The notes under the pieces: generated by a model
What the model was told of the DNA's origin: nothing
The model's input: only the letters and a program-made list of their open reading frames with translations
Databases searched by the model: none
Made by a program: the position numbers and the translations under genes
Shown here: piece by piece, positions 23,869-46,222 of the stretch
How the letters are laid out: the number at the start of each line of letters is the position of its first letter
How positions within the stretch are numbered: position 1 is the first letter of the stretch
Source of the DNA: a virus
IMG/VR virus record: IMGVR_UViG_3300023274_000005
Location: 1-51,971 of that record
Reading direction: 5' to 3' (one strand)
DNA length: 51,971 nt

Positions 23869-24121
23869 CGAACCCTCTCAGGGTTGACTTCTTCTCCTGC
23901 GGGTCGAGCTCGTCGGCCTTGGCACGAAGGAAGCCGGCGATGACCTTCGGGCTGTGGCTCGAGAGGTCCTCGGTCTCGACCCACTCTTCGAAGATGTCCG
24001 GGAGGGACCTTCCCTCCGAGGCCGCAACCTTCCGCTCCTCCGGGTCGTAGTAGACCGTACCGCTCTGGAGCTCCGAGATCACGACGCGGTACTTGTTGAT
24101 GAGGTTCTTGGACCTACGCAT
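23861..24121 (-). CDS. Hypothetical protein (86 aa)
   Basis: A soluble, charged alpha-helical protein with no family I recognise. The ATG overlaps the DNA polymerase stop (TAATG) behind GGGGAGAACTG, so it is translated with the polymerase. Confidence 0.65.
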   Translation of the reverse strand: MRRSKNLINKYRVVISELQSGTVYYDPEERKVAASEGRSLPDIFEEWVETEDLSSHSPKVIAGFLRAKADELDPQEKKSTLRGFDA

Positions 24122-26526
24122 TACAGTTCTCCCCAGTTCTTTCCGTGACTGATGTCAACAGCGAATGGAACGTATTCAGTTATCTCACGAGCTGCTTGGA
24201 CCATCTCAGCTCGTAGCATCTCAGACACCTGCTCCAGTCGTGACTCGTGGCACTCGACGACGAGCGCGTCATGGATCGTAAGGCGAATGAAGCCCAGACC
24301 ACGAAGCTTGGGTCGAAGCCGAATGAGAGCTGTGAGGCAGATGTCGGAAGCGATCGATTGTGGCAGGTAGCTGAGTGCTTCCTTGAGGACGTCTTGCTTG
24401 GTCTGTTCGGTGATGAGTGCGAACCGACGACGACGTCCGAACGGACTGATGAGATCGTGCCCTTCGAGGACGCGACGCTTGATCTCAAGCTGCCATTCAG
24501 CGACCTGCGGAATCGTAGCGAAGAAGGCTTCCAGGTCGCGCTGAACCGTCGAGACAGGAAGTTTGTACTCCTTGGCGATCGAGTAGGCTTCCCGGCCGTA
24601 GCTGAGGCCGTAGAAGTACGCCTTGACTCGGACACGTTGCTCCTTGTTCTCCGTACTGAATCTTTCCTTGTACAGCCCAGCGCCTAGGCTGTTGAAGAGG
24701 TCTTCCCCCGACTCGAAGATGTTCCGAAGGAATTCATCCCGGGACAGCCACGCAATGACGCGGCCTTCAGCCTGTTTGTAATCCGCCTGGATGAATATGT
24801 TCTCAGAGCGACTAACGGCGAATTGCCGCCGAATAGCCTTGTCCCGAACAATATTCTGAAGGTTGGGGTTACGTGAAGCCAGTCGTCCCGACGTGGTACC
24901 GTGCAGGAGATAGTTGGTAAAGACACGTCCACCGTAGAGCCTTTGACGAATACCCTTGACGAACGTTCCGTAACGCTTCGCCTCGAAGCGATGAACCAGT
25001 AGCCCGTTGACAAACATTCCCGCAGGCAACGTCGGGTTGAGTCGCTCGTCGAGTGCATTCAATACCTCCTTGTCGGTCTTCTCGACCTTGATCCCCTGGC
25101 TGTAGAGGAACTCCTTGACCTGCTTGGGCGACCTCGGGTTGATTCGAGGAATCTGTCCGTCGGTTGCGAAGTTGACGATGTCGCTGAGGCTGTCTTCCAT
25201 CTCGTTCAGCTTGCGGACGTAAGCGAGAGACAGCTGGGTGTTGTACTCGACATCGACAGCAATGCCGTTGAGCTCCAGGAACATCAGCTGGTTGCTGGCA
25301 CTGACTAGGAAGTCGTGCCAGTCTCGAAGAGTCTTGACGGGAAGATTTGGGTACGGCCACTCTTTCTTCCCGCAGCCAATTGGATCCTCCGCCATCTCTG
25401 CTGTGAAGACTTCGTAGAGGTCCCAGGTGCAGGCGACGTCGTAGGCGTTATACTTGAAGAGGAGCTCTCTGGGAATGTTGGCGTAGCTTCTTCCGCCGGA
25501 GACGTACTGCTTGATCTCGTCATCATATTGCGGAGCGCCAAGCCGTTCCACGGAAAGGACCTTGAGACCATGGCCTCCAGACCTCTCGTCCAACGCATAG
25601 TGAGCAAGCATGGTATCGAACCACAGTTCCAGTCGCGGGAAGAGTGGCCAGAGACCAGCGAGATCGAACTTGCCGTTGTGCGCAATAAGCCTGCTGCGGC
25701 GAAGAAGTCGTTCCAGACGGCCACGCACCTGGGCCGATTCAAGCGCGCCAGAGCCAATGACACCTGCTGCTCCCTTCTCCCAGCACAGTCCGATGCAGAG
25801 CATCTCGTACATGTTCGGGTGATCGAAGGACGTGTCCTTCTCGATGCCGACCTCGATGTCGGTGACCAGCTCGTAGTGCCCCGTGATGTCTTGCCACTTC
25901 CAGAGCCAGTCGAGGAACTGAACCGCTACGAGCGGTTCGTCGAATGCCTGCCACTTCGGCTCTTGCCACGGAGCCACCTGGCGATGCGTAACCTTCTCGA
26001 TGTCCGCTGCCATTGTGGGAAATGCGTCAGGGTTACGGAGGCAGTAAGCTGGGTGCCAGGTCGGTACAACTCGTTCAACAGTTCCACCGCGAACGCGCTG
26101 TCCAGGTGCCTTGGGAGGACCGACGCGAAGTTGCGTGATGGAGCGTGGATCGTCCACAGTTGCTCCTGCTGCGGTCCCACCAAGTGCAAGGATATCTCGC
26201 ACCCCTGCCCTATGGAGTTCTCCACGTAGACGTCCACTACATGCAGCTTGCGCAGCTGCAGGAGGCGTAGCGTTGTCCGGAGGACGACAAAGTACGACAT
26301 TGGTGTATAGCACCTCCTTCTTGTCGATCCCGTGGTAGTCCAGAACGGTCTTGAGGAGCTTACCGGAAGGTCCCACAAAGGGCCGACCGTATACCACTTC
26401 CTGGAAGCCTGGTGCCTCACCGATGACTGCGAGGGTGGCCCCTCCCACCGGAATGGTGGAAGGAGCCATCTTCTCGTCCTGGAGAGGGCAGTTGGAGCAG
26501 TCAGCTCCGGGTGCCTTCGATTCCAC
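24121..26526 (-). CDS. Uracil-DNA glycosylase / DNA polymerase A fusion
   Basis: The 801-residue protein has three parts. Residues 1-185 resemble [4Fe-4S] family 4 uracil-DNA glycosylases: CSNCPL, GEAPGFQEVVYGRPFVGPSG, LCRPPDNATPP and WHPAYCLRNP. Residues about 215-400 look like a DEDDy 3'-5' exonuclease (TDIEVG, IAHNGKFDLAG). The rest is a family A polymerase with motif A ADYKQAEGR (about 582-590), motif B-like RVKAYFYGLSYG (about 635-646) and motif C IHDALVVE (about 752-759), where Ala replaces the usual Glu after HD. It starts at a GTG behind GGAG, overlapping the DpdA gene by 26 bases. This is the replicative polymerase. Confidence 0.85.
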   Translation of the reverse strand: MESKAPGADCSNCPLQDEKMAPSTIPVGGATLAVIGEAPGFQEVVYGRPFVGPSGKLLKTVLDYHGIDKKEVLYTNVVLCRPPDNATPPAAAQAACSGRLRGELHRAGVRDILALGGTAAGATVDDPRSITQLRVGPPKAPGQRVRGGTVERVVPTWHPAYCLRNPDAFPTMAADIEKVTHRQVAPWQEPKWQAFDEPLVAVQFLDWLWKWQDITGHYELVTDIEVGIEKDTSFDHPNMYEMLCIGLCWEKGAAGVIGSGALESAQVRGRLERLLRRSRLIAHNGKFDLAGLWPLFPRLELWFDTMLAHYALDERSGGHGLKVLSVERLGAPQYDDEIKQYVSGGRSYANIPRELLFKYNAYDVACTWDLYEVFTAEMAEDPIGCGKKEWPYPNLPVKTLRDWHDFLVSASNQLMFLELNGIAVDVEYNTQLSLAYVRKLNEMEDSLSDIVNFATDGQIPRINPRSPKQVKEFLYSQGIKVEKTDKEVLNALDERLNPTLPAGMFVNGLLVHRFEAKRYGTFVKGIRQRLYGGRVFTNYLLHGTTSGRLASRNPNLQNIVRDKAIRRQFAVSRSENIFIQADYKQAEGRVIAWLSRDEFLRNIFESGEDLFNSLGAGLYKERFSTENKEQRVRVKAYFYGLSYGREAYSIAKEYKLPVSTVQRDLEAFFATIPQVAEWQLEIKRRVLEGHDLISPFGRRRRFALITEQTKQDVLKEALSYLPQSIASDICLTALIRLRPKLRGLGFIRLTIHDALVVECHESRLEQVSEMLRAEMVQAAREITEYVPFAVDISHGKNWGEL

Positions 26527-27268
26527 GAGCCCACTCCATGTACGTCTTGATGTTCTTGTCGAGCAGCTCTGACCACAGGTTCCAGTTGCGCTCGAAGTAC
26601 CCTTCGGGTCGGTGCACTCGAGTAGTTGCGTCCAACGCCACCCCTGCTGCCGTGTAGTTGAACGGCATGGAACTGTCGACTGAACGCACCCAGGGATGCC
26701 GCCGTGCGATGTGCAGGATCTCGCTCGGGAAGATGGGACTAGTACCGAGCAGGTGCACCCTGAACCGCTTGTCGAATCCGTTGTTCCGAATCCAGGTGAG
26801 GATGCGATCTCTCATCCAGACGTCGGATTCTGTGTTCAGGTGTCGCGGAACGCCTAGCGTCTTGATCCTGGGAATATCGGCGAAGTGTCTGATGCACTTG
26901 ATGACGCTACCCATGTCACCTTGGGCCTGAACCACTCCCATGAAGGAGTGACCAGCAGTCTCGATGAGCTTGCTGTACTCCTTCATGAAGGAGTCGACCG
27001 CGTCGATGGTAGCGTCGGCACTACCGAGCACATCCGGTAGTACGATCTCGTCCGCACCGTAGAGGTACGCCTTCTCGAAGAGGATGTCCGGCTGGACCAT
27101 CTGCCCTTCCGCCGCACCGTTGTCGACGATGATGTGGTCGTCCGCACTGACGTCGTACTGGTAGACGCCGACGTACGTAGGATCGCACACCTGCGCCAGT
27201 ACGAGGTGGATGTCCGACCGTGTCGCGTAGTTGTAGTATCCCCTAGGAGGGATCAGTGCGGCTCTCAT
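26501..27268 (-). CDS. dpdA: DpdA-like 7-deazaguanine DNA transglycosylase
   Basis: The 255-residue protein resembles the tRNA-guanine transglycosylase fold in its short phage DpdA form: HIIVDNGAAEG (about 46-56, with the catalytic-type Asp), DEIVLPDVLGS (about 73-83), GVPRHLN (about 137-143) and RVHLLGTSPI (about 168-177). DpdA exchanges guanine in DNA for preQ0 or a derivative. It lies next to the polymerase and the whole preQ0 pathway (folE, queE, queD, queC), which strongly supports this role. Confidence 0.75.
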   Translation of the reverse strand: MRAALIPPRGYYNYATRSDIHLVLAQVCDPTYVGVYQYDVSADDHIIVDNGAAEGQMVQPDILFEKAYLYGADEIVLPDVLGSADATIDAVDSFMKEYSKLIETAGHSFMGVVQAQGDMGSVIKCIRHFADIPRIKTLGVPRHLNTESDVWMRDRILTWIRNNGFDKRFRVHLLGTSPIFPSEILHIARRHPWVRSVDSSMPFNYTAAGVALDATTRVHRPEGYFERNWNLWSELLDKNIKTYMEWARGIEGTRS

Positions 27269-27582
27269 ATCTCCCTCTTCCCGTCGATGAAGTGGGGCTG
27301 CGCGAGAGGACCGTCGTAGCCCTCCTTAGCCAGTCCGATCTCGCCGGCCGTTTCGATCACCTTGACGATGTCGTCGCGGAGCATGGCGAGCTTGATGTAC
27401 GTGAACATGGCGTAGTTGCCAAGGTCGAGTACTTCGTCCATGGCGTGCTGGATCGTGTCGACCTTGAGCCACGTGCCGGGACCGTACTTCTTCTCACCCT
27501 GCTCGTGACGCTGTCGACGTAGCGCTTCGAACTCGTTGGCGTACTCGTTGAGCTTCTTCGCCATCTCTTCGGAAGCACTCAT
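27265..27582 (-). CDS. Small helical protein, MazG-like
   Basis: The 105-residue protein carries RRQRHEQGEKKYGPGTW (about 22-38) and AMDEVLDLGNYAMFTYIKLA (about 47-66), which resemble all-alpha nucleotide pyrophosphohydrolases of phages. It overlaps both neighbours (TGATG upstream, ATGA downstream). It could clean the nucleotide pool for modified DNA synthesis, but the metal-binding acidic residues are not all clear. Confidence 0.5.
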   Translation of the reverse strand: MSASEEMAKKLNEYANEFEALRRQRHEQGEKKYGPGTWLKVDTIQHAMDEVLDLGNYAMFTYIKLAMLRDDIVKVIETAGEIGLAKEGYDGPLAQPHFIDGKREI

Positions 27583-27965
27583 CAGTAGGGACGCTCCGAG
27601 TCACCGTAGGGGTTGTGCACGTGGAAGTCGTGCTTGTCCTGTTCGCCGAAGCGTGCCTGGTTGAAGTCACGCTTCTCGTTCCAGATGCTCTCCCAGTTCA
27701 CATCACGGAACTCCGGAAGGCCCATCATGTTGATGAGGTAGATGAGAACGTCTACCATCTCCTCGCTGACGAGCATCTTGACCTCGTCGAGCGTCTTGCT
27801 GCCGCGCTCGACCTTCTTGATGAGGTTACACACCTCACCGACCTCACCGGCCATGGCCAGAGCCATGAAGGCGGGCGACTGCGCCTGAGGGAACCACTTC
27901 ACGCTATCCGTAGCGCAGGCGTAGATCATGTCGGATAGATTGAGGTTCATCTTACCCTGTGCCAT
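27582..27965 (-). CDS. MazG-like nucleotide pyrophosphohydrolase
   Basis: The 127-residue protein has the MazG metal-binding signature in two helices: AGEVGEVCNLIKKVERG (about 39-55) and SEEMVDVLIYLINMMG (about 67-82), with an ExxE then ExxD arrangement. It would hydrolyse NTPs or dNTPs to monophosphates. It starts at TAATG overlapping the folE stop, so it belongs to the preQ0 operon. Confidence 0.75.
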   Translation of the reverse strand: MAQGKMNLNLSDMIYACATDSVKWFPQAQSPAFMALAMAGEVGEVCNLIKKVERGSKTLDEVKMLVSEEMVDVLIYLINMMGLPEFRDVNWESIWNEKRDFNQARFGEQDKHDFHVHNPYGDSERPY

Positions 27966-28639
27966 TACTTGATCGCCTCCAGGAATTCCATCTTGGCGGT
28001 ACGGGAGTGATCGGCGAACACTCCGAGGGTCTCGACGATGCGAGTAGTGGTACCAGGAACCTGAGCACCACGAAGCGTCATGCAGAAGTGCTCGGCCTCA
28101 GTGACCACCATAAGGCCCTTCGGCTTAAGGTGTCCTTCCAGGAAGTTCACCACTTCCTGTGTGAGTACCTCCTGCACTTGCAGCTTGCGTGCGAAGTGGT
28201 TGAGCACGCGTGCGAACTTGGACAGGCCGGCGACCTTGCCATCGGGCACGTAGCCGACCCACGCGAAGCCGGAGAACGGAATGACGTGGTGGTTGCAGAC
28301 CGAGTAGAATGGGATCTTCTTGACCACGATCATCTGGTCGACGCTCTCGGGGAACGTCTTCCACTTCATGCAGTCACCGTTGCAGTTCTTGTGCGACGTG
28401 AGTTCGTTCAGCATCGCCAGGAACCGTCGAGGCGTATCCTTGCCGTGCTCCGAGTTCAGATCGAGCCCGGCGTAGACCGCGAGAAGGTCTTCGGCGCAAC
28501 CAGGAACCTCGTGCTTCTCGTCTTGGGAGAGCATCGGACGCTGCACGTCCCTTATGTCCCGCTCCATCTCATCCAACGGAATGTCCACCTTTCGAAAGGG
28601 TGAGGGAAAGACTTCACCTAGGTTCTTGAACTGCTGCAC
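27965..28639 (-). CDS. folE: GTP cyclohydrolase I
   Basis: The first enzyme of the 7-deazaguanine pathway, converting GTP to dihydroneopterin triphosphate. The family core is plain: YSVCNHHVIPFSGFAWVGYV (zinc-binding Cys/His and active-site His, about 111-130), GLSKFARVLNHFARKLQVQE (about 137-156) and EAEHFCMTLRGA (about 180-191). At 224 residues it is of full length. The GTG start follows AGGGGGTCTAAC, just behind the queE stop. Confidence 0.9.
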   Translation of the reverse strand: MQQFKNLGEVFPSPFRKVDIPLDEMERDIRDVQRPMLSQDEKHEVPGCAEDLLAVYAGLDLNSEHGKDTPRRFLAMLNELTSHKNCNGDCMKWKTFPESVDQMIVVKKIPFYSVCNHHVIPFSGFAWVGYVPDGKVAGLSKFARVLNHFARKLQVQEVLTQEVVNFLEGHLKPKGLMVVTEAEHFCMTLRGAQVPGTTTRIVETLGVFADHSRTAKMEFLEAIK

Positions 28640-28640
28640 G

Positions 28641-29372
28641 TTAGACCCCCTGCTTGTCCGGGTGCCAAACGTACTTGTGCACCTGTACGTTGAGGTTCCA
28701 GGGGAGGCGATCCTCGATCATCCAGGCACACAGCTGCTCGGTGGTCAGCTCCTGCCCCCAGACGACTCCTGCGTACACCCGAGGCCCGCTACGAGTGACG
28801 TCGACGTACTCCTCGTAGCGGCGCTTGGCTTCGACGTAGTCCTTACGATCCTTGATCGTAAACTTGACTGCATCCTCCTGGTTGAGCTTCTCGAGGTTCG
28901 AGAAGAAGGCGGCTTCGTCCTTGTACACCTCACCAGAGCCAGGAAGTTTCCAGTCCAGGATGAAGTTTCCGATGAGATGCACGATGTTGTGATCCCACCA
29001 TAGCGCTCCGTTGGTAAAGCACTCGACGTTGGCGAAGCTGTTGACCTCACTCACGAACGCCTTGAGTGCCTCCGTGTTCTGGAGGAAGACCTCGCCACCG
29101 GTGAGGCAGACGTTGTCGACACCGAGTTCCACCACTTCCTGGGCCAGAACCAGAGGGTCGACGACGCGCTGCGTCTTGGTGAAGAGCTTCGGATCGATGG
29201 CGTGCTGTGTGTCACATGGCCACCCAGGGCACTTGAAGTTGCAGCCCGCGAAGCGGACGAAGACAGTGGGCCGAGAGGTGTTCGGTCCTTCTCCCTGATA
29301 CGAGACATAGGTCTCCACCACCCTCAGCTTGGGACCGGATACGGCCTCCGAGATGACGTCTGTGTAGGTCAT
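28641..29372 (-). CDS. queE: 7-carboxy-7-deazaguanine synthase (radical SAM)
   Basis: QueE rearranges carboxytetrahydropterin to 7-carboxy-7-deazaguanine. The N-terminus has VETYVSYQGEGPNTSRPTVF (about 18-37), the family opening, and the Fe-S cluster motif GCNFKCPGWPCDT (about 43-55). The cysteine spacing is C-x3-C-x4-C instead of the usual C-x3-C-x2-C. VCLTGGEVFLQ (about 88-98) is the SAM-binding GGE motif. It overlaps queD by four bases. Confidence 0.85.
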   Translation of the reverse strand: MTYTDVISEAVSGPKLRVVETYVSYQGEGPNTSRPTVFVRFAGCNFKCPGWPCDTQHAIDPKLFTKTQRVVDPLVLAQEVVELGVDNVCLTGGEVFLQNTEALKAFVSEVNSFANVECFTNGALWWDHNIVHLIGNFILDWKLPGSGEVYKDEAAFFSNLEKLNQEDAVKFTIKDRKDYVEAKRRYEEYVDVTRSGPRVYAGVVWGQELTTEQLCAWMIEDRLPWNLNVQVHKYVWHPDKQGV

Positions 29373-29854
29373 CGAACGATCGCTTCCCTGTTGCCGTAGA
29401 TCGCCATGACCTCTGCACCGTTGGTTCGCGTCTCAGCGATTCGACAGATGACGTCTACGTGGAACGATTCGGCCGCCCACAGTGCGATCCACTTGCAGAG
29501 GTTCTCGACGGTCGGATCGCCCGGGAAGGTCTTCAGGCCAGGCAACTTCTGCTCGACCCCATTCTCCCACTCCTCACCATGGAAGTAGAGGTTCTGTGCC
29601 CAGTCATCACGCTCGTTGAGGAGCAAGTGGTGGTCGTAGTCCTCGTCGATGTGGGCACGGAACGACTTCTTGATGGCGGAGAAGTCGAGGATGTTTCCCT
29701 CGCGGTCCTTCGCCATACCGGTTTCGAGGTCCTGCGCAAGTTCGAGCAGCACCAGTTCGATCTGAAGACCGTGCCCGTGGATCTGTTGGCACTTGCCGGG
29801 TGACTGCGACAAGCGATGTGCAATCTCCGCATTGTGCCGAACCATCATTCTCAC
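29369..29854 (-). CDS. queD: 6-carboxytetrahydropterin synthase
   Basis: QueD makes carboxytetrahydropterin from dihydroneopterin triphosphate. HRLSQSPGKCQQIHGHGLQI (about 13-32) carries the zinc-binding His and catalytic Cys, LDFSAIKK and DHHLLLNERD follow, and DPTVENLCKWIA closes the active site. I chose the GTG at 29854 because GAGGGAG is 6 bases upstream; the longer frame to 29941 would run through the promoter-like element. At 161 residues it is full length. Confidence 0.85.
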   Translation of the reverse strand: MRMMVRHNAEIAHRLSQSPGKCQQIHGHGLQIELVLLELAQDLETGMAKDREGNILDFSAIKKSFRAHIDEDYDHHLLLNERDDWAQNLYFHGEEWENGVEQKLPGLKTFPGDPTVENLCKWIALWAAESFHVDVICRIAETRTNGAEVMAIYGNREAIVR

Positions 29855-29871
29855 AGCGCGCTCCCTCGTGC

Positions 29872-29941
29872 GTGTGGAGTTTTGTCCACTACGGATGTCT
29901 AGTTTAACACAGGCCGCATGAAGCTGATTCAAACTCCACAC
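29872..29941. promoter_or_regulatory. Paired inverted GTGTGGAG elements upstream of queD
   Basis: GTGTGGAG (29872-29879) and its complement CTCCACAC (29934-29941) face each other 70 bp end to end with GTTTAAC in the middle (29902-29908). Rightward: box, then TTTAAC at 29903-29908. Leftward: TTGAAT (29927-29932), 19-bp spacer, TTAAAC (29902-29907), placed to drive queD. The central sequence is shared by both half-sites. The same architecture is at 43744-43825. Confidence 0.65.
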
Positions 29942-29949
29942 GGCCTGTG
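29908..29949 (-). terminator. Hairpin after queC
   Basis: CACAGGCCG (29908-29916) pairs with CGGCCTGTG (29941-29949), a 9-bp stem with a 24-base loop, 8 bases past the queC stop. It overlaps the paired GTGTGGAG element, so ending of queC transcripts and new initiation toward queD appear to share one DNA segment. Confidence 0.5.
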
Positions 29950-29956
29950 GGTCCTA

Positions 29957-30832
29957 TTACTTCTTGACGGCCGTCTTCCAGAACTCGGCGTCCTCGTACT
30001 TGGTGTTGTCTCGGGGTTCGTTCACCTGGTACTCGTGGCTGTTGTCCCACAGCTTGATGGCCTCGTCGATGGCCTCCAGGCGCTCGACGCACGTGCCGCA
30101 CTTGCCGCAGTGCATGCTGTCGCCCTTGTAGCAGCTCCAGGTGTTCTCGAAGGGCACCTTCAGCTTGAGTGCCTCGTAGGCGATGTCCGCCTTGGACATC
30201 TCCAGGTACGGAGCCATGATGAACTGCGGAACCTCCGTACCCGGCTCCAGCTTCGGAATGCTGCCGAAGCCCTCGTTGCCGAGGACGATCGCGACGCTGG
30301 TTGCCATGATGAACTGCGGGCGACAGTCCGGGTACACGAAGTGGTCGCCGGCGTGTACTGCCGTTGCGACACCCTGGTAGCCGTTGTTGACGGCGATGCC
30401 GGCTGCGATGGACAGCATGATCATGTTCCGATTCGGAACGACCGTGAGCTTCATGTTGTCCTCGGCGTAGTGGCCCTCCGGTACCTCGATCTCGTCCTCG
30501 TGCCTGACGGGACCGTTGGGGTCGACGTTCTTCGAGGAGGTGAGGGCCGAGTTGCTGATCAGGTGGGTCAGGTCGGAGAGGTCGATGCAGTCCCAACGCA
30601 GTCCGAGGAGCTGTGCGGTACGTTCGGCGAACACGAGTTCCTTCTTGTGTCGCTGTCCGTAGTTGAACGAGACTAGGTGGGGCGTGTAGCCCCTGCTGAG
30701 CAGGCCGTAGACCAACGTCGTCGAGTCCATGCCCCCGCTGAAGATCACGGCAATGTCCGGCTCCTTGGTGAAGTCGGGGTTCTCTCGCCTGAAGTCCAGG
30801 TAGGACTGCTCAGTGTTGATGGGCTGGGTCAC
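29957..30832 (-). CDS. queC: 7-cyano-7-deazaguanine (preQ0) synthase
   Basis: QueC converts carboxydeazaguanine to preQ0 with ATP and ammonia. The PP-loop IFSGGMDSTTLVYGLLSRGY (about 29-48), SFNYGQRHKKE (about 54-64) and VPNRNMIMLSIAAGIA (about 132-147) match the family, and the zinc site CYKGDSMHCGKCGTCVER lies at about 231-248. It is a single-domain QueC without an attached amidotransferase. The GTG start overlaps the primase stop (GTGA) behind GGAGGAG. Confidence 0.9.
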   Translation of the reverse strand: MTQPINTEQSYLDFRRENPDFTKEPDIAVIFSGGMDSTTLVYGLLSRGYTPHLVSFNYGQRHKKELVFAERTAQLLGLRWDCIDLSDLTHLISNSALTSSKNVDPNGPVRHEDEIEVPEGHYAEDNMKLTVVPNRNMIMLSIAAGIAVNNGYQGVATAVHAGDHFVYPDCRPQFIMATSVAIVLGNEGFGSIPKLEPGTEVPQFIMAPYLEMSKADIAYEALKLKVPFENTWSCYKGDSMHCGKCGTCVERLEAIDEAIKLWDNSHEYQVNEPRDNTKYEDAEFWKTAVKK

Positions 30833-33021
30833 TTTACTCCTCCGATGAGTGGGTAGTACATCTGTGCACCAGACTCAGTCCGCTTCATGGTGATCTGGCC
30901 ACGTTGGATGAGGGTGTCGAACGTCGTGTTCGCTTGCTGTGCTGTCAGATGGTACGATTGCATCAGGCGCGACCTAGTGATGCCTGGCCGCTTCAGGATG
31001 GCGGCGAGGATCCTTTCGAGCTCACGCTCGTACATGTTCTTGCCGATACCGCCGACTACTTCGATTGCGTAGGCCCTCCACTGGATGCAGTAGCGGATGG
31101 CATGCAGGATGTCCTCTACTTCTACGACAACGTTGTCTTCTCCTACCTGTCTAGCTGCCGATATGAGTACGGCAGCCTTCAGCGTGTTCTTAGCTAGGCG
31201 GTCGAACAGCGGTGTCATCAACTCGGGCTTCTCCGAGTTGAGTCCACTCTGGAGTAATGCACTCTCCAGTTCGTTGTAGCGTACCCAGGCTTCTCGAGTC
31301 AGTGAAGCATCCCAGGTCTCGCGAGCAGGTACGCGTTGTCCTAATGCCTTGACGTACGCCTGCCTGCTCTGACCATAGTGTGCAACCATGGCCTCCATCC
31401 TCTCGAGGAGGATGTCACGATTGCCTAGATCCCTTGCGGTGGGGGGCCCAAGGGGCTGTAGCCTGGACGTGTCAGACTCAGCCGTGACGAAGATGAAACG
31501 GGGGATGAAGCCTGAGGAAACGTGCTCATGTGTGAGCAGTCCCTGTACGCGATTGCGAATGCCTCCCGCAAGGATAAGGAGGATAGGGTGCCTAACCACA
31601 ATCTCTTCCTTGCGCAGGATTCGCTTCTGCATCTTTCCGTCATACAGCTTGGTGAGCACCTCAGCCATGCCAGCATAGTAGTCCTTCTTCGTGATCATCT
31701 CCAGCAAGCCGGAGAACTCATCCCTCAAGAAGATCGATGGTCGCCTCGGCCTCGTGGAGAGACCTTGCATGAGGCCTTCCACCGAGCCGTCGGTAGCCAG
31801 GATTGCGTCCGGATCCACATCCATCAGAAGGTCCGTTGCGATGTCCATCGCCGTCGTCTTGCGTGTCAAGGTCGTGTCGCCCAGGATCATGAACCACAGG
31901 TTCGGTACTACCGGGCCGTAGCTCGTCGGAAGTGTAACACGTCCCGACAGCAATGCACTCAGGATTGTAAATGCACCAGCCTGATGGTACTGGGTCGCAG
32001 CGTCTCCCAGTGATGAGGCCCATTCGATGTACTCCTCTACGAATCCCGTCTGCCTGTTGGCTATCTTGAGTTCCTCCTCCGTCAGGAGCTCAGCGATATC
32101 CGCACCGGGGTAGATGGTCGCGTTGACGCGATCGGTGTACGCAACGAACGCTCTACAGACTTCGACCCAGAGGTAGCTCTTGTCCTTTCCATCTCGGCGA
32201 TACTTGTTGCAGGCACTCTCCCAGGCCACGACAAAAACCTCTTCGCGTGACATGCCCATCTCAAGGAGACACATCTCCAGCTTCCAAAGCTTTTCCGACC
32301 AGCTGTTGTCGTCTGGCGTTACGGCGAACAGGTCGTATACGTTCGGAAGCAACGCGTGCTTGTACTTCTGGAGAATGTCCTCTGCTGGCTCTTGCGGAAG
32401 CTCGGCCGCAGAGGGCATAGGCGTCCGCATGAACTGGCTGGTCTTGACTTCAGGGTAGTCTTCGAAGTCTCGAGGGCTGTACATCGCCCTGAGCTCGCCA
32501 CCCTTGATCATGACCTCGGGCTCGCCGGCATACTTGTAGTTGACGGTACTAGGAACACGAAGCAGCTGAGTCAGATCCCAGCCACTCCTGTCGCAACCGT
32601 CCTCTGCATGGAAGTAGGCGATGCGCTTGCAGAGGTCTTCTGCGATGTGCCCAGGCAGCGGGTGACTCATTCGCCAGAGTGCTTGGTAACGTCTGGGCGA
32701 GCTCTCGACGATGACCGAAGGAGGCTTCAGCATCTTGGTAGGAGGGCAAGTGTCCAGGTCTGCCCAGAGGGTAGGACACGACGCAACAGCGCTCTTGGTC
32801 CTGGTAGTAGTTTCGAACAGCTGAGGACAGTAGTACACGTCGGCGGAGAACTTGCTGTCGTTTGCAAACTTGGCCGCGGCATCAACCTGCTCAGGGTAGC
32901 GGAAGAACCTCTCCTGCATCGACCGCTTGCCTGAGCCAAGGCCGAGTAGCGATACGCACAGGTAGCCTCTAGCTGATGCGCCGAAGACCAGCTGGAAGAA
33001 GGTCTTGATCTGTTGTTCCAT
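30829..33021 (-). CDS. Primase-helicase (RepB-like primase plus DUF3987 ATPase)
   Basis: The 730-residue protein joins an archaeo-eukaryotic-type primase, with WADLDTC (about 86-92, metal-binding D-x-D), RRYQALWRM (about 110-118) and DLTQLLRVPSTVNYK (about 149-163), to a DUF3987-type ATPase whose Walker A is ILGDTTLTRKTTAM (about 379-392) with IFLRDEFSGLL as the Walker B region. The last 60 residues look like a winged helix. It should prime and unwind DNA for the fused polymerase. The ATG at 33021 has AGGG 7 bases upstream. Confidence 0.75.
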   Translation of the reverse strand: MEQQIKTFFQLVFGASARGYLCVSLLGLGSGKRSMQERFFRYPEQVDAAAKFANDSKFSADVYYCPQLFETTTRTKSAVASCPTLWADLDTCPPTKMLKPPSVIVESSPRRYQALWRMSHPLPGHIAEDLCKRIAYFHAEDGCDRSGWDLTQLLRVPSTVNYKYAGEPEVMIKGGELRAMYSPRDFEDYPEVKTSQFMRTPMPSAAELPQEPAEDILQKYKHALLPNVYDLFAVTPDDNSWSEKLWKLEMCLLEMGMSREEVFVVAWESACNKYRRDGKDKSYLWVEVCRAFVAYTDRVNATIYPGADIAELLTEEELKIANRQTGFVEEYIEWASSLGDAATQYHQAGAFTILSALLSGRVTLPTSYGPVVPNLWFMILGDTTLTRKTTAMDIATDLLMDVDPDAILATDGSVEGLMQGLSTRPRRPSIFLRDEFSGLLEMITKKDYYAGMAEVLTKLYDGKMQKRILRKEEIVVRHPILLILAGGIRNRVQGLLTHEHVSSGFIPRFIFVTAESDTSRLQPLGPPTARDLGNRDILLERMEAMVAHYGQSRQAYVKALGQRVPARETWDASLTREAWVRYNELESALLQSGLNSEKPELMTPLFDRLAKNTLKAAVLISAARQVGEDNVVVEVEDILHAIRYCIQWRAYAIEVVGGIGKNMYERELERILAAILKRPGITRSRLMQSYHLTAQQANTTFDTLIQRGQITMKRTESGAQMYYPLIGGVK

Positions 33022-33082: not shown

Positions 33083-33571
33083 TCAGGAAGGCAGCAGCGA
33101 GGTACCCGTCTTGGCGGACGCGGTCTGACTCTGCGAGCCGACCTTCACCTGCTGCTCGGCCAGCGTGGCGAACGACTTGATGTCGTTGCGCTCGTCGTAC
33201 TCCTTGTCGCCGACCTTGCGCGGCGGGGTGATGGTGATGCGGGCCATCAGCTCACCGCCGATCAGGTCGTCGCCCTCGGGGATCTCGAGTTCACCCTCGT
33301 CGACCTCGTAGCCGAGGCCCTTGAGGATGGCGATGATCGTGTAGAGGGCGCCGTCCCAGAGGCAGGCGTTCGTGAAGACCTTGCGGCCCTCGAACTCGGC
33401 CGGCTCGTTGACGGTGAACTCCATGGCGTACATCGGCTTGCCGTTGTTCTTCTCGGACTTCGACTCCTTGAGTGCGACGTCCGAGATGGTCACCTTGTAC
33501 CAGCCCCGGGGGAGCATGACGAGGTTGCCGGCTTCCGACTCCTTCTTGGAGACGTTGACCTGAATGCCCAT
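33083..33571 (-). CDS. ssDNA-binding protein (DUF669-like)
   Basis: The 162-residue protein has an OB-like beta pattern (GNLVMLPRGWYKVTISDVAL, about 16-35; NNGKPMYAMEFTV, about 42-54) and an EGDDLIGGELMARITI strand, as in phage DUF669 single-strand binding proteins, with a disordered Ser/Gln/Thr end. It follows the Sak4-like ATPase gene with a four-base gap, which fits a recombination/replication pair. ATG at 33571 chosen over the GTG two codons upstream. Confidence 0.65.
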   Translation of the reverse strand: MGIQVNVSKKESEAGNLVMLPRGWYKVTISDVALKESKSEKNNGKPMYAMEFTVNEPAEFEGRKVFTNACLWDGALYTIIAILKGLGYEVDEGELEIPEGDDLIGGELMARITITPPRKVGDKEYDERNDIKSFATLAEQQVKVGSQSQTASAKTGTSLLPS

Positions 33572-33573
33572 TG

Positions 33574-34356
33574 TCACTTCTTCTCTCGTGTAGTGGTGTA
33601 GTAGTCGAGGATCGTTTTCATGGTTACGGGTTCCTCTACCCCGATCACAGCCGGCATGCGGCAGCCACGCACCTTGGCCGTCGCGTTGTCCGTCTGTGCG
33701 GTCAGAAGCAAACGCTTCTGATCCCCGTCGACCTCCTGGTTGTACATGAAGAAGACGAGATCGGGAATCTGTGGGACCTTCATCTGCGTCTTACCGTTCA
33801 GCAGCGGCATCCACTTCTGCTTGCCGCTGTTGAGCTTGACGCGCTCGGCGTGAGCGATGAAGATCACATTCATCGGCAGGTCACGGTACAGGCGAATGAG
33901 GCGGAGCAGGCGAACCTGCATCTTACCCCACTCGCGAAGGGAAGGCACGTCCGCGTCGCGGCTCTCGTTCTCCGGATCGGCCTTCATCTCGACCATGACC
34001 TGTTCGCGGTTCTGTTCGTTGATCTCCGACAGCGAGTCCAGAACCACCGTCTGGTATCCGTGCCCGCCTGCCTTGAGGGCATGGTAGACACTGGTGTAGT
34101 CCTGCCAGGCGGTACACCTGAGCATCTCTACTTCCGGCCACTCCCGAAGCGTGACAGAACCGCCCTCAGCATCGAGGTACAGTACGTTACGCATAGTTGG
34201 AACAGCCGAAGCAGAACCAGCAAGCCAAGTCTTGCCAACGCCAGCCTCCCCGTAGAGGAGCATGTTGATCCTGTCGATGCCCTGCGTCTGTGGTCGCTGG
34301 ATCTTCAGCCCTGCGAAGTTGGTAGGGGTGAGAATCTCAGAAGCGGAACTCACCAT
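33574..34356 (-). CDS. Sak4-like RecA-fold ATPase
   Basis: The 260-residue protein has Walker A LYGEAGVGKTWLAGSAS (about 34-50), Walker B-like YQTVVLDSLSEINEQN (about 100-115) and a VIFIAHAER strand (about 164-172). This AAA_24/Sak4 type helps pair single strands during phage recombination, together with the ssDNA-binding protein next to it and the nuclease two genes upstream. It overlaps the DUF397 gene by 20 bases. Confidence 0.75.
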   Translation of the reverse strand: MVSSASEILTPTNFAGLKIQRPQTQGIDRINMLLYGEAGVGKTWLAGSASAVPTMRNVLYLDAEGGSVTLREWPEVEMLRCTAWQDYTSVYHALKAGGHGYQTVVLDSLSEINEQNREQVMVEMKADPENESRDADVPSLREWGKMQVRLLRLIRLYRDLPMNVIFIAHAERVKLNSGKQKWMPLLNGKTQMKVPQIPDLVFFMYNQEVDGDQKRLLLTAQTDNATAKVRGCRMPAVIGVEEPVTMKTILDYYTTTREKK

Positions 34357-34570
34357 TCTTCACCCCCTTGACGAAGGCGTCCCACTCTTCGTGGGTGAAC
34401 GCCAAGACCTGATCAGGCCTGTTGCTGTTACGGATGAGGACGGAGCTGCCCACCTCGGCAACCTCGACGCACTGTCCACCGCTACAGAACGATGCCTTGC
34501 GCCACTGAGCCTGCTGCACCTCAACGCAGGAGCCGTTCGCGCAGTGTGCTGCGCGCTGCCACTCGCTCAT
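34337..34570 (-). CDS. DUF397 protein
   Basis: The 77-residue protein ends with the DUF397 pattern: QWRKASFCSGGQCVEVAEVG (about 22-41), LIRNSNRPDQ (about 45-54), and FTHEEWDAFVKGVKNGEFRF (about 58-77). The N-terminus, EWQRAAHCANGSCVEV, looks like a second incomplete copy of the first motif. In Streptomyces such small proteins pair with XRE-type regulators of the WhiJ kind and affect development. In a phage it may bind a host regulator. It overlaps genes on both sides. Confidence 0.8.
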   Translation of the reverse strand: MSEWQRAAHCANGSCVEVQQAQWRKASFCSGGQCVEVAEVGSSVLIRNSNRPDQVLAFTHEEWDAFVKGVKNGEFRF

Positions 34571-35913
34571 ACCTGTTCCATCCTCTTGTCTGTACTGGGC
34601 TCCTGATCTTCCCAGTAGTGCCTGTCGAGCTTGTCGAACATTGTGTTCAGCCCGTACTGGACATCTTCGCCACGATTAGTACCGAGGCATACTTCGAAGA
34701 AGGCGCATCCAGAAAAGGTGCTGAAGCCCTTGCAGTGGAACCGGCCAGCGTTGGGGTAGATCGGCAGGCTCGGGTTGGTCATGTCTCGAGCCTCGAGGTA
34801 GATCATCCTCTGGGCCTCTTCGCATTCAGAGTCGTTGCGCTGCACCTCGTGGCGGTAGTGGAAGATTGGTCCCTCTTCCTTCAAGTAGTCCAGGAAGTCA
34901 TCGTACCTACCCGACTCGAAGGCGATGGGATCGTTTTCCTCTACTGTCGACTTGTAGAGGTCATACGTCGTGTCGAGGTTCTTCGAGACAGAGAAGCGAC
35001 GCCCGAGGCGAACGACCTTGAGGGGTTCTGGTTCGTCGGGGACGGCCTTCTTGAGCTCCATGTAGATGAAGCCGAGGATGGGCAGACCAAGCATCCGTAG
35101 CGCCCACACGTAGGAAGTGATCTGGTCGTCGAGTTCCAGGTACTCGTCGTTAACTTCCACTCCGGAGAGACGTGCCGCCGTCTTCCAGTCGCCGATCCAG
35201 TAGTTACCGAACTCGTCCTCGAAGAGGATGTCAAGTCGACCTCCGTAGGTGACGGGCAGACCCTTCCAGATCTTGAAGTACTCCTGCTCAGCAGTCTCAC
35301 CCTGTCCGCCGCAGAGCTCGTCGATGGCCTCGAGGTAACGCTCCCAGCTCCCGTACTCCTTGCGGTACACATCTGACTTCTTAAAGCGACGCCAGCACCA
35401 GTCACACTTGCACCAGAGGTCCTGCTCGCCGGTATCAGGGTTGAGGATGGGGACTTCGAACTTGATCTCGACCTTAACGGGCTTGAGTCGACCGAAGTGC
35501 TCGAGTCTATCGACGTCTGGGTAGAGCTTGCCGAAGTAGTACCTCAGCATACCCTCGCCGAGTCGGACGCGATCGTCGTAGTCGGCCTTCATCTCATCGT
35601 CGATGCCACCGTTCAGGCGGATGTACTTCTCCCGCTGCTCTCGGGTGACTCGCTTGAAGGTAGCGAGTGCAATGGCGAGGGTTGCGGTGGGATCAGGATC
35701 GACGAAGAGTTCCAGACGATTGCGATATGCTGCCTCCATAGCTGCGTGGAAAGCAACTCCGAACTCAAGCGGGCGAGGAGTGACACGTGGGTAGTAGAAC
35801 TGTCGCGAGATCCAGTCCCACCGTCTACGGCATCCACGGAATGACCTCCTCTCAGAGGTATGTATCGAGTGGGTCAAGCCTGCCTCGATGTAGTCGTTCA
35901 CAGTTGAGAGCAT
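34567..35913 (-). CDS. PD-(D/E)XK nuclease (Cas4/RecB-like)
   Basis: The 448-residue protein has RSFRGCRRRWDWISRQFY near the N-terminus, LEFGVAFHAAMEAAY (motif I His), GGRLDILFEDEFGNYWIGDW followed by KTA (about 222-244, the catalytic D and D-x-K) and DDQITSYVWALRMLG (Q-x3-Y motif). Cysteines at both ends (CRRRW and CAFFEVC) suggest an Fe-S cluster. It would trim DNA ends for Sak4-type recombination. The ATG at 35913 lies 41 bases downstream of the -10 at 35954 behind AAGGAC. Confidence 0.75.
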   Translation of the reverse strand: MLSTVNDYIEAGLTHSIHTSERRSFRGCRRRWDWISRQFYYPRVTPRPLEFGVAFHAAMEAAYRNRLELFVDPDPTATLAIALATFKRVTREQREKYIRLNGGIDDEMKADYDDRVRLGEGMLRYYFGKLYPDVDRLEHFGRLKPVKVEIKFEVPILNPDTGEQDLWCKCDWCWRRFKKSDVYRKEYGSWERYLEAIDELCGGQGETAEQEYFKIWKGLPVTYGGRLDILFEDEFGNYWIGDWKTAARLSGVEVNDEYLELDDQITSYVWALRMLGLPILGFIYMELKKAVPDEPEPLKVVRLGRRFSVSKNLDTTYDLYKSTVEENDPIAFESGRYDDFLDYLKEEGPIFHYRHEVQRNDSECEEAQRMIYLEARDMTNPSLPIYPNAGRFHCKGFSTFSGCAFFEVCLGTNRGEDVQYGLNTMFDKLDRHYWEDQEPSTDKRMEQV

Positions 35914-35953
35914 CTGCGCGTCCTTGAGGCTATGTTGTTCTTTGTTACCTCTA

Positions 35954-35982
35954 AGTATAATAGACCCCAAGTGGAAAATCAA
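35954..35982 (-). promoter_or_regulatory. Leftward sigma70-like promoter for the recombination genes
   Basis: On the minus strand TTGATT (35982-35977) and TATACT (35959-35954) are 17 bp apart. The predicted transcript would begin near 35947 and runs into the nuclease, DUF397, Sak4 and ssDNA-binding genes. The -35 overlaps the stop region of the upstream gene. Confidence 0.65.
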
Positions 35983-44418: not shown

Positions 44419-44501
44419 CGCTCCGTACACCGGATTCGAACCGGCGCTTCCCCCTTGCCCTGTCCTCAGAGGGCGGATCCCTAACGGAATCTCCACGGAG
44501 C
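44419..44501 (-). tRNA. tRNA-like element, possible Leu(GAG), aberrant
   Basis: On the minus strand the acceptor GCTCCGT (44501-44495) pairs with ACGGAGC (44426-44420) and a T-arm with TTCGAAT loop is clear. The anticodon arm GCCCT/AGGGC encloses an 8-base loop CTGAGGAC instead of 7, with GAG in the anticodon place. The D-arm is poor (GGA/TCC only) and the T-stem can extend to 7 bp. It may be a degenerate tRNA, an unusual suppressor-like tRNA or a tRNA mimic. No CCA is encoded. Confidence 0.45.
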
Positions 44502-46116: not shown

Positions 46117-46138
46117 GGTGGACTCCTTTCTTGTTGCG

Positions 46139-46222
46139 TATCTCCGGCAGGAATCGAACCTGCTACAAACGCCTTACCCCATGCTGCAGCGGGAGGCTGC
46201 TCTGCCATTGAGCTACGGAGAC
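46139..46222 (-). tRNA. tRNA-like element with enlarged anticodon region
   Basis: On the minus strand acceptor GTCTCCG (46222-46216) pairs with CGGAGAT (46146-46140), the D-arm GCTC-AATGGCA-GAGC and T-arm GCAGG-TTCGATT-CCTGC are standard class I. Between them are 35 bases instead of about 23, and no 5-bp stem with a 7-base loop forms. CTGCAGC (anticodon GCA, Cys) and CTCCC (Gly) are candidate loops. An insertion, a degenerate tRNA or a mimic are all possible. No CCA is encoded. Confidence 0.5.

What the first reader, a model, noticed from the sequence alone, without database searches (positions are those of the whole stretch)
26501..30832. Complete 7-deazaguanine DNA modification cassette
folE, queD, queE and queC give the full route from GTP to preQ0, and a short DpdA-like transglycosylase in the same leftward arm can place the base in DNA. 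No QueF-type reductase or amidotransferase is seen, so dPreQ0 is the simplest predicted base. Two MazG-type proteins sit inside the operon and may protect the nucleotide pool. Such modification is known to block host restriction in other phages.
Basis: partly seen in the sequence, partly recalled or inferred. Interest (0 to 1): 0.75.

Follow-up and report, generated by a model that had tools for sequence, protein, structure and literature searches.

The report
Phage guanine-swapping DNA modification operon
This uncultured tailed phage carries, inside its DNA-replication operon, a complete set of genes to make an altered guanine (a 7-deazaguanine) and an enzyme to swap it into its own DNA, a known phage disguise against host restriction enzymes, here with a short and little-annotated type of swapping enzyme.

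Summary
On the minus strand, 30832 to 26501, lie queC, queD, queE, folE, a MazG-like gene, a 105-residue gene and a 255-residue gene, tightly packed and followed at once by a UDG-polymerase A gene. All four preQ0 enzymes match their families and keep their catalytic motifs. No QueF or glutamine amidotransferase was found.

The key doubt was the 255-residue protein, which matches no Pfam family. Its AlphaFold model (pLDDT 95) matches tRNA-guanine transglycosylases and the solved DNA preQ0 insertase DpdA. The TGT/DpdA active-site positions are invariant in 31 relatives. Its profile also finds an unannotated protein in Campylobacter phage CP220, whose guanines are reported to be fully replaced by dADG.

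Context was tested by searching with this protein alone: 53 of 53 uncultured phage loci with enough upstream sequence carry at least three of the four preQ0 genes (48 all four), and polymerase A follows in 69 of 69. Classical DpdA1 never occurs with it.

It is a new member of a known kind: a 7-deazaguanine DNA-modification operon with a compact DpdA, most likely the type called DpdA3. dPreQ0 is the best guess; dADG is open.

The parts
29957..30832 (-). queC, 7-cyano-7-deazaguanine (preQ0) synthase, 291 aa
   Evidence: Pfam QueC E=6.5e-53; NCBIfam TIGR00364 over cut-off; SGGMDS and Cys motif; 53% identical to QueC of Rhodococcus phage Finch in alignment A2
29369..29941 (-). queD, 6-carboxytetrahydropterin synthase, 190 aa
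   Evidence: Pfam PTPS E=3.7e-19; PHROG QueD 8.2e-25; KCxxIHGH, DHH and PTVEN motifs
28641..29372 (-). queE, radical SAM 7-carboxy-7-deazaguanine synthase, 243 aa
   Evidence: PHROG QueE-like E=8.7e-27; NCBIfam QueE 1.7e-34; C44-x3-C48-x4-C53, same spacing in four relatives
27965..28639 (-). folE, GTP cyclohydrolase I, 224 aa
   Evidence: Pfam GTP_cyclohydroI E=1.1e-50; zinc and active-site motifs
27582..27965 (-). MazG-like NTP pyrophosphohydrolase, 127 aa
   Evidence: PHROG MazG-like 4.2e-6; invariant E41, E44, E69, D72 in 17 relatives
27265..27582 (-). conserved 105-aa protein of unknown function, two-helix model; not shown to be MazG
   Evidence: no Pfam match; found in 67 of 80 DpdA loci; model pLDDT 74, no fold match; no profile match to MazG
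26501..27268 (-). compact DpdA-like DNA-guanine transglycosylase, 255 aa
   Evidence: model pLDDT 95.3, pTM 0.92; Foldseek TGT 1.4e-6 and DpdA 7ui4 7.4e-6; profile vs 7ui4 E=8e-4; invariant D49, E54, D79, H172, G175, D198, N239
24121..26526 (-). uracil-DNA glycosylase domain fused to family A DNA polymerase, immediately downstream; part of the conserved operon, not of the base pathway
   Evidence: Pfam UDG 7.7e-23 and DNA_pol_A 2.5e-61; polA follows the DpdA gene in 69 of 69 loci
30829..33021 (-). replicative primase/helicase-like protein just upstream of queC
   Evidence: PHROG DNA primase 8.6e-96; conserved neighbour
33083..35982 (-). ssDNA-binding-like protein, Sak4-like annealing protein and PD-(D/E)XK exonuclease at the head of the operon
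   Evidence: PHROG and Pfam matches; conserved gene order

Best explanation
It is a phage operon for post-replicative guanine replacement. FolE, QueD, QueE and QueC turn GTP into preQ0. The compact DpdA at 26501-27268, a TGT-fold enzyme, then exchanges guanine in phage DNA for the 7-deazaguanine by base exchange through a covalent intermediate on Asp198, with Asp49 and Asp79 holding or activating the base. With no QueF or amidotransferase the DNA should carry dPreQ0, possibly partly dADG, and so resist host restriction enzymes. Shown here: the genes, their motifs, the predicted fold, conserved catalytic residues and the fixed genetic linkage. Inferred: the chemistry, the identity of the base, its density and its protective effect.
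For: Complete enzyme set with intact motifs. TGT/DpdA fold of the 255-aa protein and profile match to solved DpdA 7ui4 E=8e-4. Asp198 aligns with the residue that, counted from the alignment, is the TGT nucleophile Asp280; D49, D79, H172 and D198 line up with the invariant DpdA1 residues. Seven residues invariant over 31 diverse relatives. Family-only search: 53/53 testable loci have at least three preQ0 genes, 48 all four; polA next door 69/69; DpdA1 in none. Among 80 QueC loci, 30 carry this type, 33 carry DpdA1, none both, P=3e-10 if independent, as expected of interchangeable enzymes. Profile finds CP220 (E=8.5e-27), a phage reported with 100% dG replacement (PMC8306585). Known precedent: FolE, QueD, QueE, QueC plus DpdA without amidotransferase gave dPreQ0 in Rosebush and CAjan and altered restriction (PMC6884629).
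Against: No nucleoside measurement exists for this phage or any uncultured relative. The DpdA match rests on remote homology and a predicted fold (single-sequence searches find nothing in Pfam or PDB). CP220 carries dADG, so the final base need not be dPreQ0. In Vibrio phage D479 the relative has folE next to it but no clear QueC, so not every family member need use preQ0. QueE has an unusual cluster-loop spacing.
Confidence: 0.88

Rival explanations
1. Same cassette, but the base in DNA is mainly dADG (amide) rather than dPreQ0, and replacement of guanine may be complete rather than partial, as reported for CP220.
For: The family's profile detects the CP220 protein at E=8.5e-27; CP220 has QueC (E=2.9e-55); CP220 and CPt10 are reported with 100% dG to dADG (PMC8306585). 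QueC is known to make the amide as an intermediate (own knowledge).
Against: The window protein is only a remote relative of the CP220 one (separate branches); QueC here has all preQ0-synthase motifs; Rosebush and CAjan with the same gene set carry dPreQ0 at about 30% of G (PMC6884629).
Confidence: 0.3
2. The enzymes make a modified dGTP that the phage polymerase incorporates; the MazG-like protein trims normal dGTP, and the 255-aa protein has another role.
For: Such a route was once proposed for Campylobacter phages (PMC6884629); a MazG-like gene and polA are in the same operon.
Against: The 255-aa protein has a transglycosylase fold with invariant catalytic residues and DpdA1 is never found beside it, as if they replace each other; no nucleotide kinase or phosphoribosyl-type gene sits in the operon; MazG is missing from 22 of 80 DpdA loci, some of them short.
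Confidence: 0.05
3. The genes raise preQ0/queuosine supply for host tRNA, with the 255-aa protein acting as a tRNA-guanine transglycosylase.
For: By fold the best-scoring solved structures are TGTs; preQ0 is a tRNA precursor.
Against: The protein is much shorter than bacterial TGT (255 vs about 350-390 residues); the closest sequence-profile match in PDB is DpdA, not TGT; no QueF to make preQ1, the bacterial TGT substrate; always packed against DNA replication genes.
Confidence: 0.05

Closest known systems
[quoted passage not shown] 2019, PMC6884629)
   Same: FolE, QueD, QueE, QueC plus a DpdA, no amidotransferase or QueF; predicted product dPreQ0
   Different: Those carry the classical DpdA types; the window uses a compact DpdA with a Gln where DpdA1 has its conserved His, and its genes sit between primase and polymerase A
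Compact DpdA of Campylobacter phage CP220, Flavobacterium phage immuto 2-6A, Cellulophaga phage phiST, Bacillus phage BSP7, Weizmannia phage Youna2, Brevundimonas phage MaInes
   Same: Same protein family by profile; same invariant residues; preQ0 genes in the same genome, in Youna2 and BSP7 with the same order and polA next
   Different: 18-29% identity to the window protein by tblastn; accessory genes differ (immuto has QueF and a formyltransferase, phiST lacks QueC)
Bacterial DpdA, PDB 7ui4, and tRNA-guanine transglycosylase
   Same: Fold and catalytic aspartates
   Different: Window protein is 255 aa against 413-436 and about 350-390
DpdA3 of Cui et al. 2023 (NAR gkad657)
   Same: From memory: the subfamily of phages with complete guanine replacement, which would include CP220-type phages
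   Different: The paper is not held here, so the assignment could not be checked against its own sequences

Membership tests
Phage preQ0-type 7-deazaguanine DNA-modification system | FolE, QueD, QueE and QueC all present with catalytic motifs | tested here: met
Phage preQ0-type 7-deazaguanine DNA-modification system | A DpdA-type DNA-guanine transglycosylase in the genome | tested here: met
Phage preQ0-type 7-deazaguanine DNA-modification system | No amidotransferase or QueF (separates dPreQ0 from dG+ and dPreQ1 types) | tested here: met
   QueF and GATase_6 searched in six frames; ArcS not searched; the record may be incomplete
Phage preQ0-type 7-deazaguanine DNA-modification system | Modified base present in virion DNA | not testable with these tools
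   uncultured phage, no DNA
TGT/DpdA superfamily | TGT-like barrel fold | tested here: met
   Foldseek E=1.4e-6 to 6ygr, 7.4e-6 to 7ui4, TM about 0.57-0.62 by query
TGT/DpdA superfamily | Catalytic and base-binding Asp residues conserved | tested here: met
   D49, D79, D198 invariant in 31 rows, aligned with DpdA1 residues and, for D198, with TGT
DpdA1 (9g-type phage DpdA) | Detected by the DpdA1 profile and carries the conserved His | tested here: not met
   no hit by the A3 profile at E<=1e-3; remote profile-profile match only; Gln114 at the His position
DpdA2 (nt-1/KVP40 type) | Same family as the KVP40/nt-1 protein | tested here: inconclusive
   A4 profile finds nothing in the KVP40 record at E<=10, but the DpdA2 gene itself was not identified and compared
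DpdA3 (Cui et al. 2023, from memory) | Homologous to the transglycosylase of phages with complete guanine replacement | tested here: met
   CP220 hit E=8.5e-27; CP220 100% dADG (PMC8306585); label itself unverified
DpdA3 (Cui et al. 2023, from memory) | All guanines replaced | not testable with these tools
   needs nucleoside LC-MS
MazG pyrophosphohydrolase (27582-27965) | ExxE...ExxD metal-binding motif | tested here: met
   invariant E41, E44, E69, D72
   hhalign probability 0.4%; no MazG match in 16 members

The most novel reading that the evidence does not exclude
A widespread, essentially uncultured lineage of about 50-kb phages has built guanine replacement into its core replication operon (exonuclease, annealing protein, primase, QueC-D-E, FolE, MazG, 105-aa protein, DpdA, UDG-polymerase A) and replaces all or nearly all guanine, in a G+C-rich genome, by a 7-deazaguanine, with the conserved 105-aa protein as a dedicated new helper of DpdA or the polymerase.
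Probability: 0.2. Interest if true: 0.6.

Novelty: new member of a known kind. Interest (0 to 1): 0.38.

Why it matters
It adds strong evidence that the compact, mostly unannotated DpdA family is a working DNA-guanine transglycosylase type, alternative to DpdA1, and that a large group of uncultured phages carries it as part of the replication operon. Annotation misses it: the window protein has no Pfam match and most relatives are labelled 'hypothetical'. The profile and its seven invariant residues give a ready way to spot phages whose DNA may resist restriction enzymes and may be under-represented in sequencing.

Tried and rejected
Nucleotide search of phage records: no match. Single-sequence PDB search: nothing relevant. 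Second MazG: rejected. Defence-system reading of QueC (QatC): considered; PADLOC and NCBIfam hits to QatC are weak beside QueC. Cellular origin: one weak relative in one MAG contig, not followed. Paper defining DpdA3/4: not held. tRNA calls in the window have odd anticodons and were not used.

Full report
Observation. The window is a 51,971-base virus record. Between 30832 and 26501 on the minus strand lie seven genes with overlaps or gaps of a few bases, then a fused uracil-DNA glycosylase/polymerase A gene overlapping the last one by 26 bases. QueC, QueD, QueE and FolE are each recognised by family models and keep their catalytic motifs. The four enzymes form the complete GTP-to-preQ0 route. 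QueF and GATase_6 were sought in six frames across the record; nothing passed a cut-off.

The insertion enzyme. The 255-residue protein has no Pfam match and no relevant single-sequence PDB match. tblastn found 18 phage records at 18-29% identity. In Youna2, BSP7, immuto, MaInes and phiST, preQ0 genes lie within a few kilobases, and in Youna2, BSP7 and MaInes polymerase A follows directly. In Vibrio phage D479 only folE is near. A profile of these seven finds the solved DNA-guanine transglycosylase 7ui4 first (E=8e-4), then, at weaker scores (E 0.16 and above), dozens of TGT chains. AlphaFold2 with 31 sequences gave pLDDT 95.3 and pTM 0.92. Foldseek against PDB returned TGT (E=1.4e-6) and 'DNA preQ0 insertase DpdA' (E=7.4e-6), and against viral models phiST (TM 0.83) and, further down, annotated queuine tRNA-ribosyltransferases of actinophages.

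Active site. D49, E54, D79, H172, G175, D198 and N239 are invariant over 31 sequences of 22-38% identity to the window protein. Profile-profile alignment puts D49, D79, H172 and D198 on invariant DpdA1 residues. In the alignment with TGT, D198 falls on the residue that by counting is Asp280, the TGT nucleophile (role from own knowledge). Where DpdA1 has a conserved His, this family has Gln114, which resembles the 'VQG' motif of TGT (own knowledge).

Genetic linkage. A QueC-based scan gave 80 loci: 30 with this DpdA type, 33 with DpdA1, none with both, 17 with neither, several of them short. If loci were independent the chance of no overlap would be 3e-10; they are partly related, so the real strength is lower. 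An independent scan by the DpdA-like protein alone gave 80 loci. Of the 53 with at least 5 kb upstream, 48 have all four preQ0 genes and 5 have three. PolA lies next downstream in 69 of 69. DpdA1 occurs in none. MazG occurs in 58 and the 105-aa gene in 67. The commonest order is exonuclease, annealing protein, primase, QueC, QueD, QueE, FolE, MazG, 105-aa, DpdA, PolA, exactly that of the window.

Which DpdA. The profile finds nothing in the KVP40, HVTV-2 or DpdA1 phage records but finds CP220 at E=8.5e-27; the CP220 protein shows the same motifs. CP220 and CPt10 are reported with 100% of dG replaced by dADG (PMC8306585); in 2019 such phages were placed among those without a DpdA (PMC6884629). 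From memory, Cui et al. 2023 named a subfamily DpdA3 for complete replacement; the paper is not held, so the label is tentative. The window protein is on a different branch from CP220/immuto, with weak support for the deep forks.

Mechanism. Most likely: preQ0 is made by FolE-QueD-QueE-QueC and exchanged for guanine in DNA by the compact DpdA, giving dPreQ0, as in Rosebush and CAjan with the same gene set (PMC6884629). The fixed place beside the polymerase suggests expression together with replication. The role of MazG (nucleotide pool) is a guess; the 105-aa protein is unknown. The base, its density and protection are not shown.

Verdict. It is a new member of a known kind, of moderate interest for the wide spread and operon integration of a little-annotated enzyme family.

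Noticed in passing
24121-26526: The DNA polymerase A carries an N-terminal uracil-DNA glycosylase domain (UDG E=7.7e-23, DNA_pol_A 2.5e-61) next to the base-modification genes.
   Followed up: partly
28641-29372: QueE has an enlarged radical-SAM cluster loop, C-x3-C-x4-C (CNFKCPGWPC), shared by four relatives; immuto and phiST QueE have an even longer loop.
   Followed up: partly
L013:10322-11482: HVTV-2 gp68, next to folE, is PF20314 (DUF6610, E=2.7e-56) and is hit by the A1 DpdA profile (E=1.5e-4); 8 of 31 window-family members weakly match DUF6610. DUF6610 is probably a DpdA-like transglycosylase of archaeal viruses.
   Followed up: partly
L110:2661-3452: Unannotated protein of Campylobacter phage CP220 belongs to this DpdA family; a candidate for the enzyme behind its reported full dADG substitution.
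   Followed up: partly
L007:9920-10777: Vibrio phage D479 has a family member near folE and beside a nucleotide kinase but no clear QueC in the genome.
   Followed up: no
27265-27582: 105-aa protein of unknown function, two-helix model, kept in 67 of 80 DpdA loci, directly upstream of the DpdA gene in the usual order.
   Followed up: partly
L077:3311-4030: In some relatives queE lies upstream of the exonuclease gene, at the head of the operon.
   Followed up: no
44420-44499 and 46138-46222: ARAGORN calls two tRNA-like genes with four-base anticodons; probably spurious.
   Followed up: no
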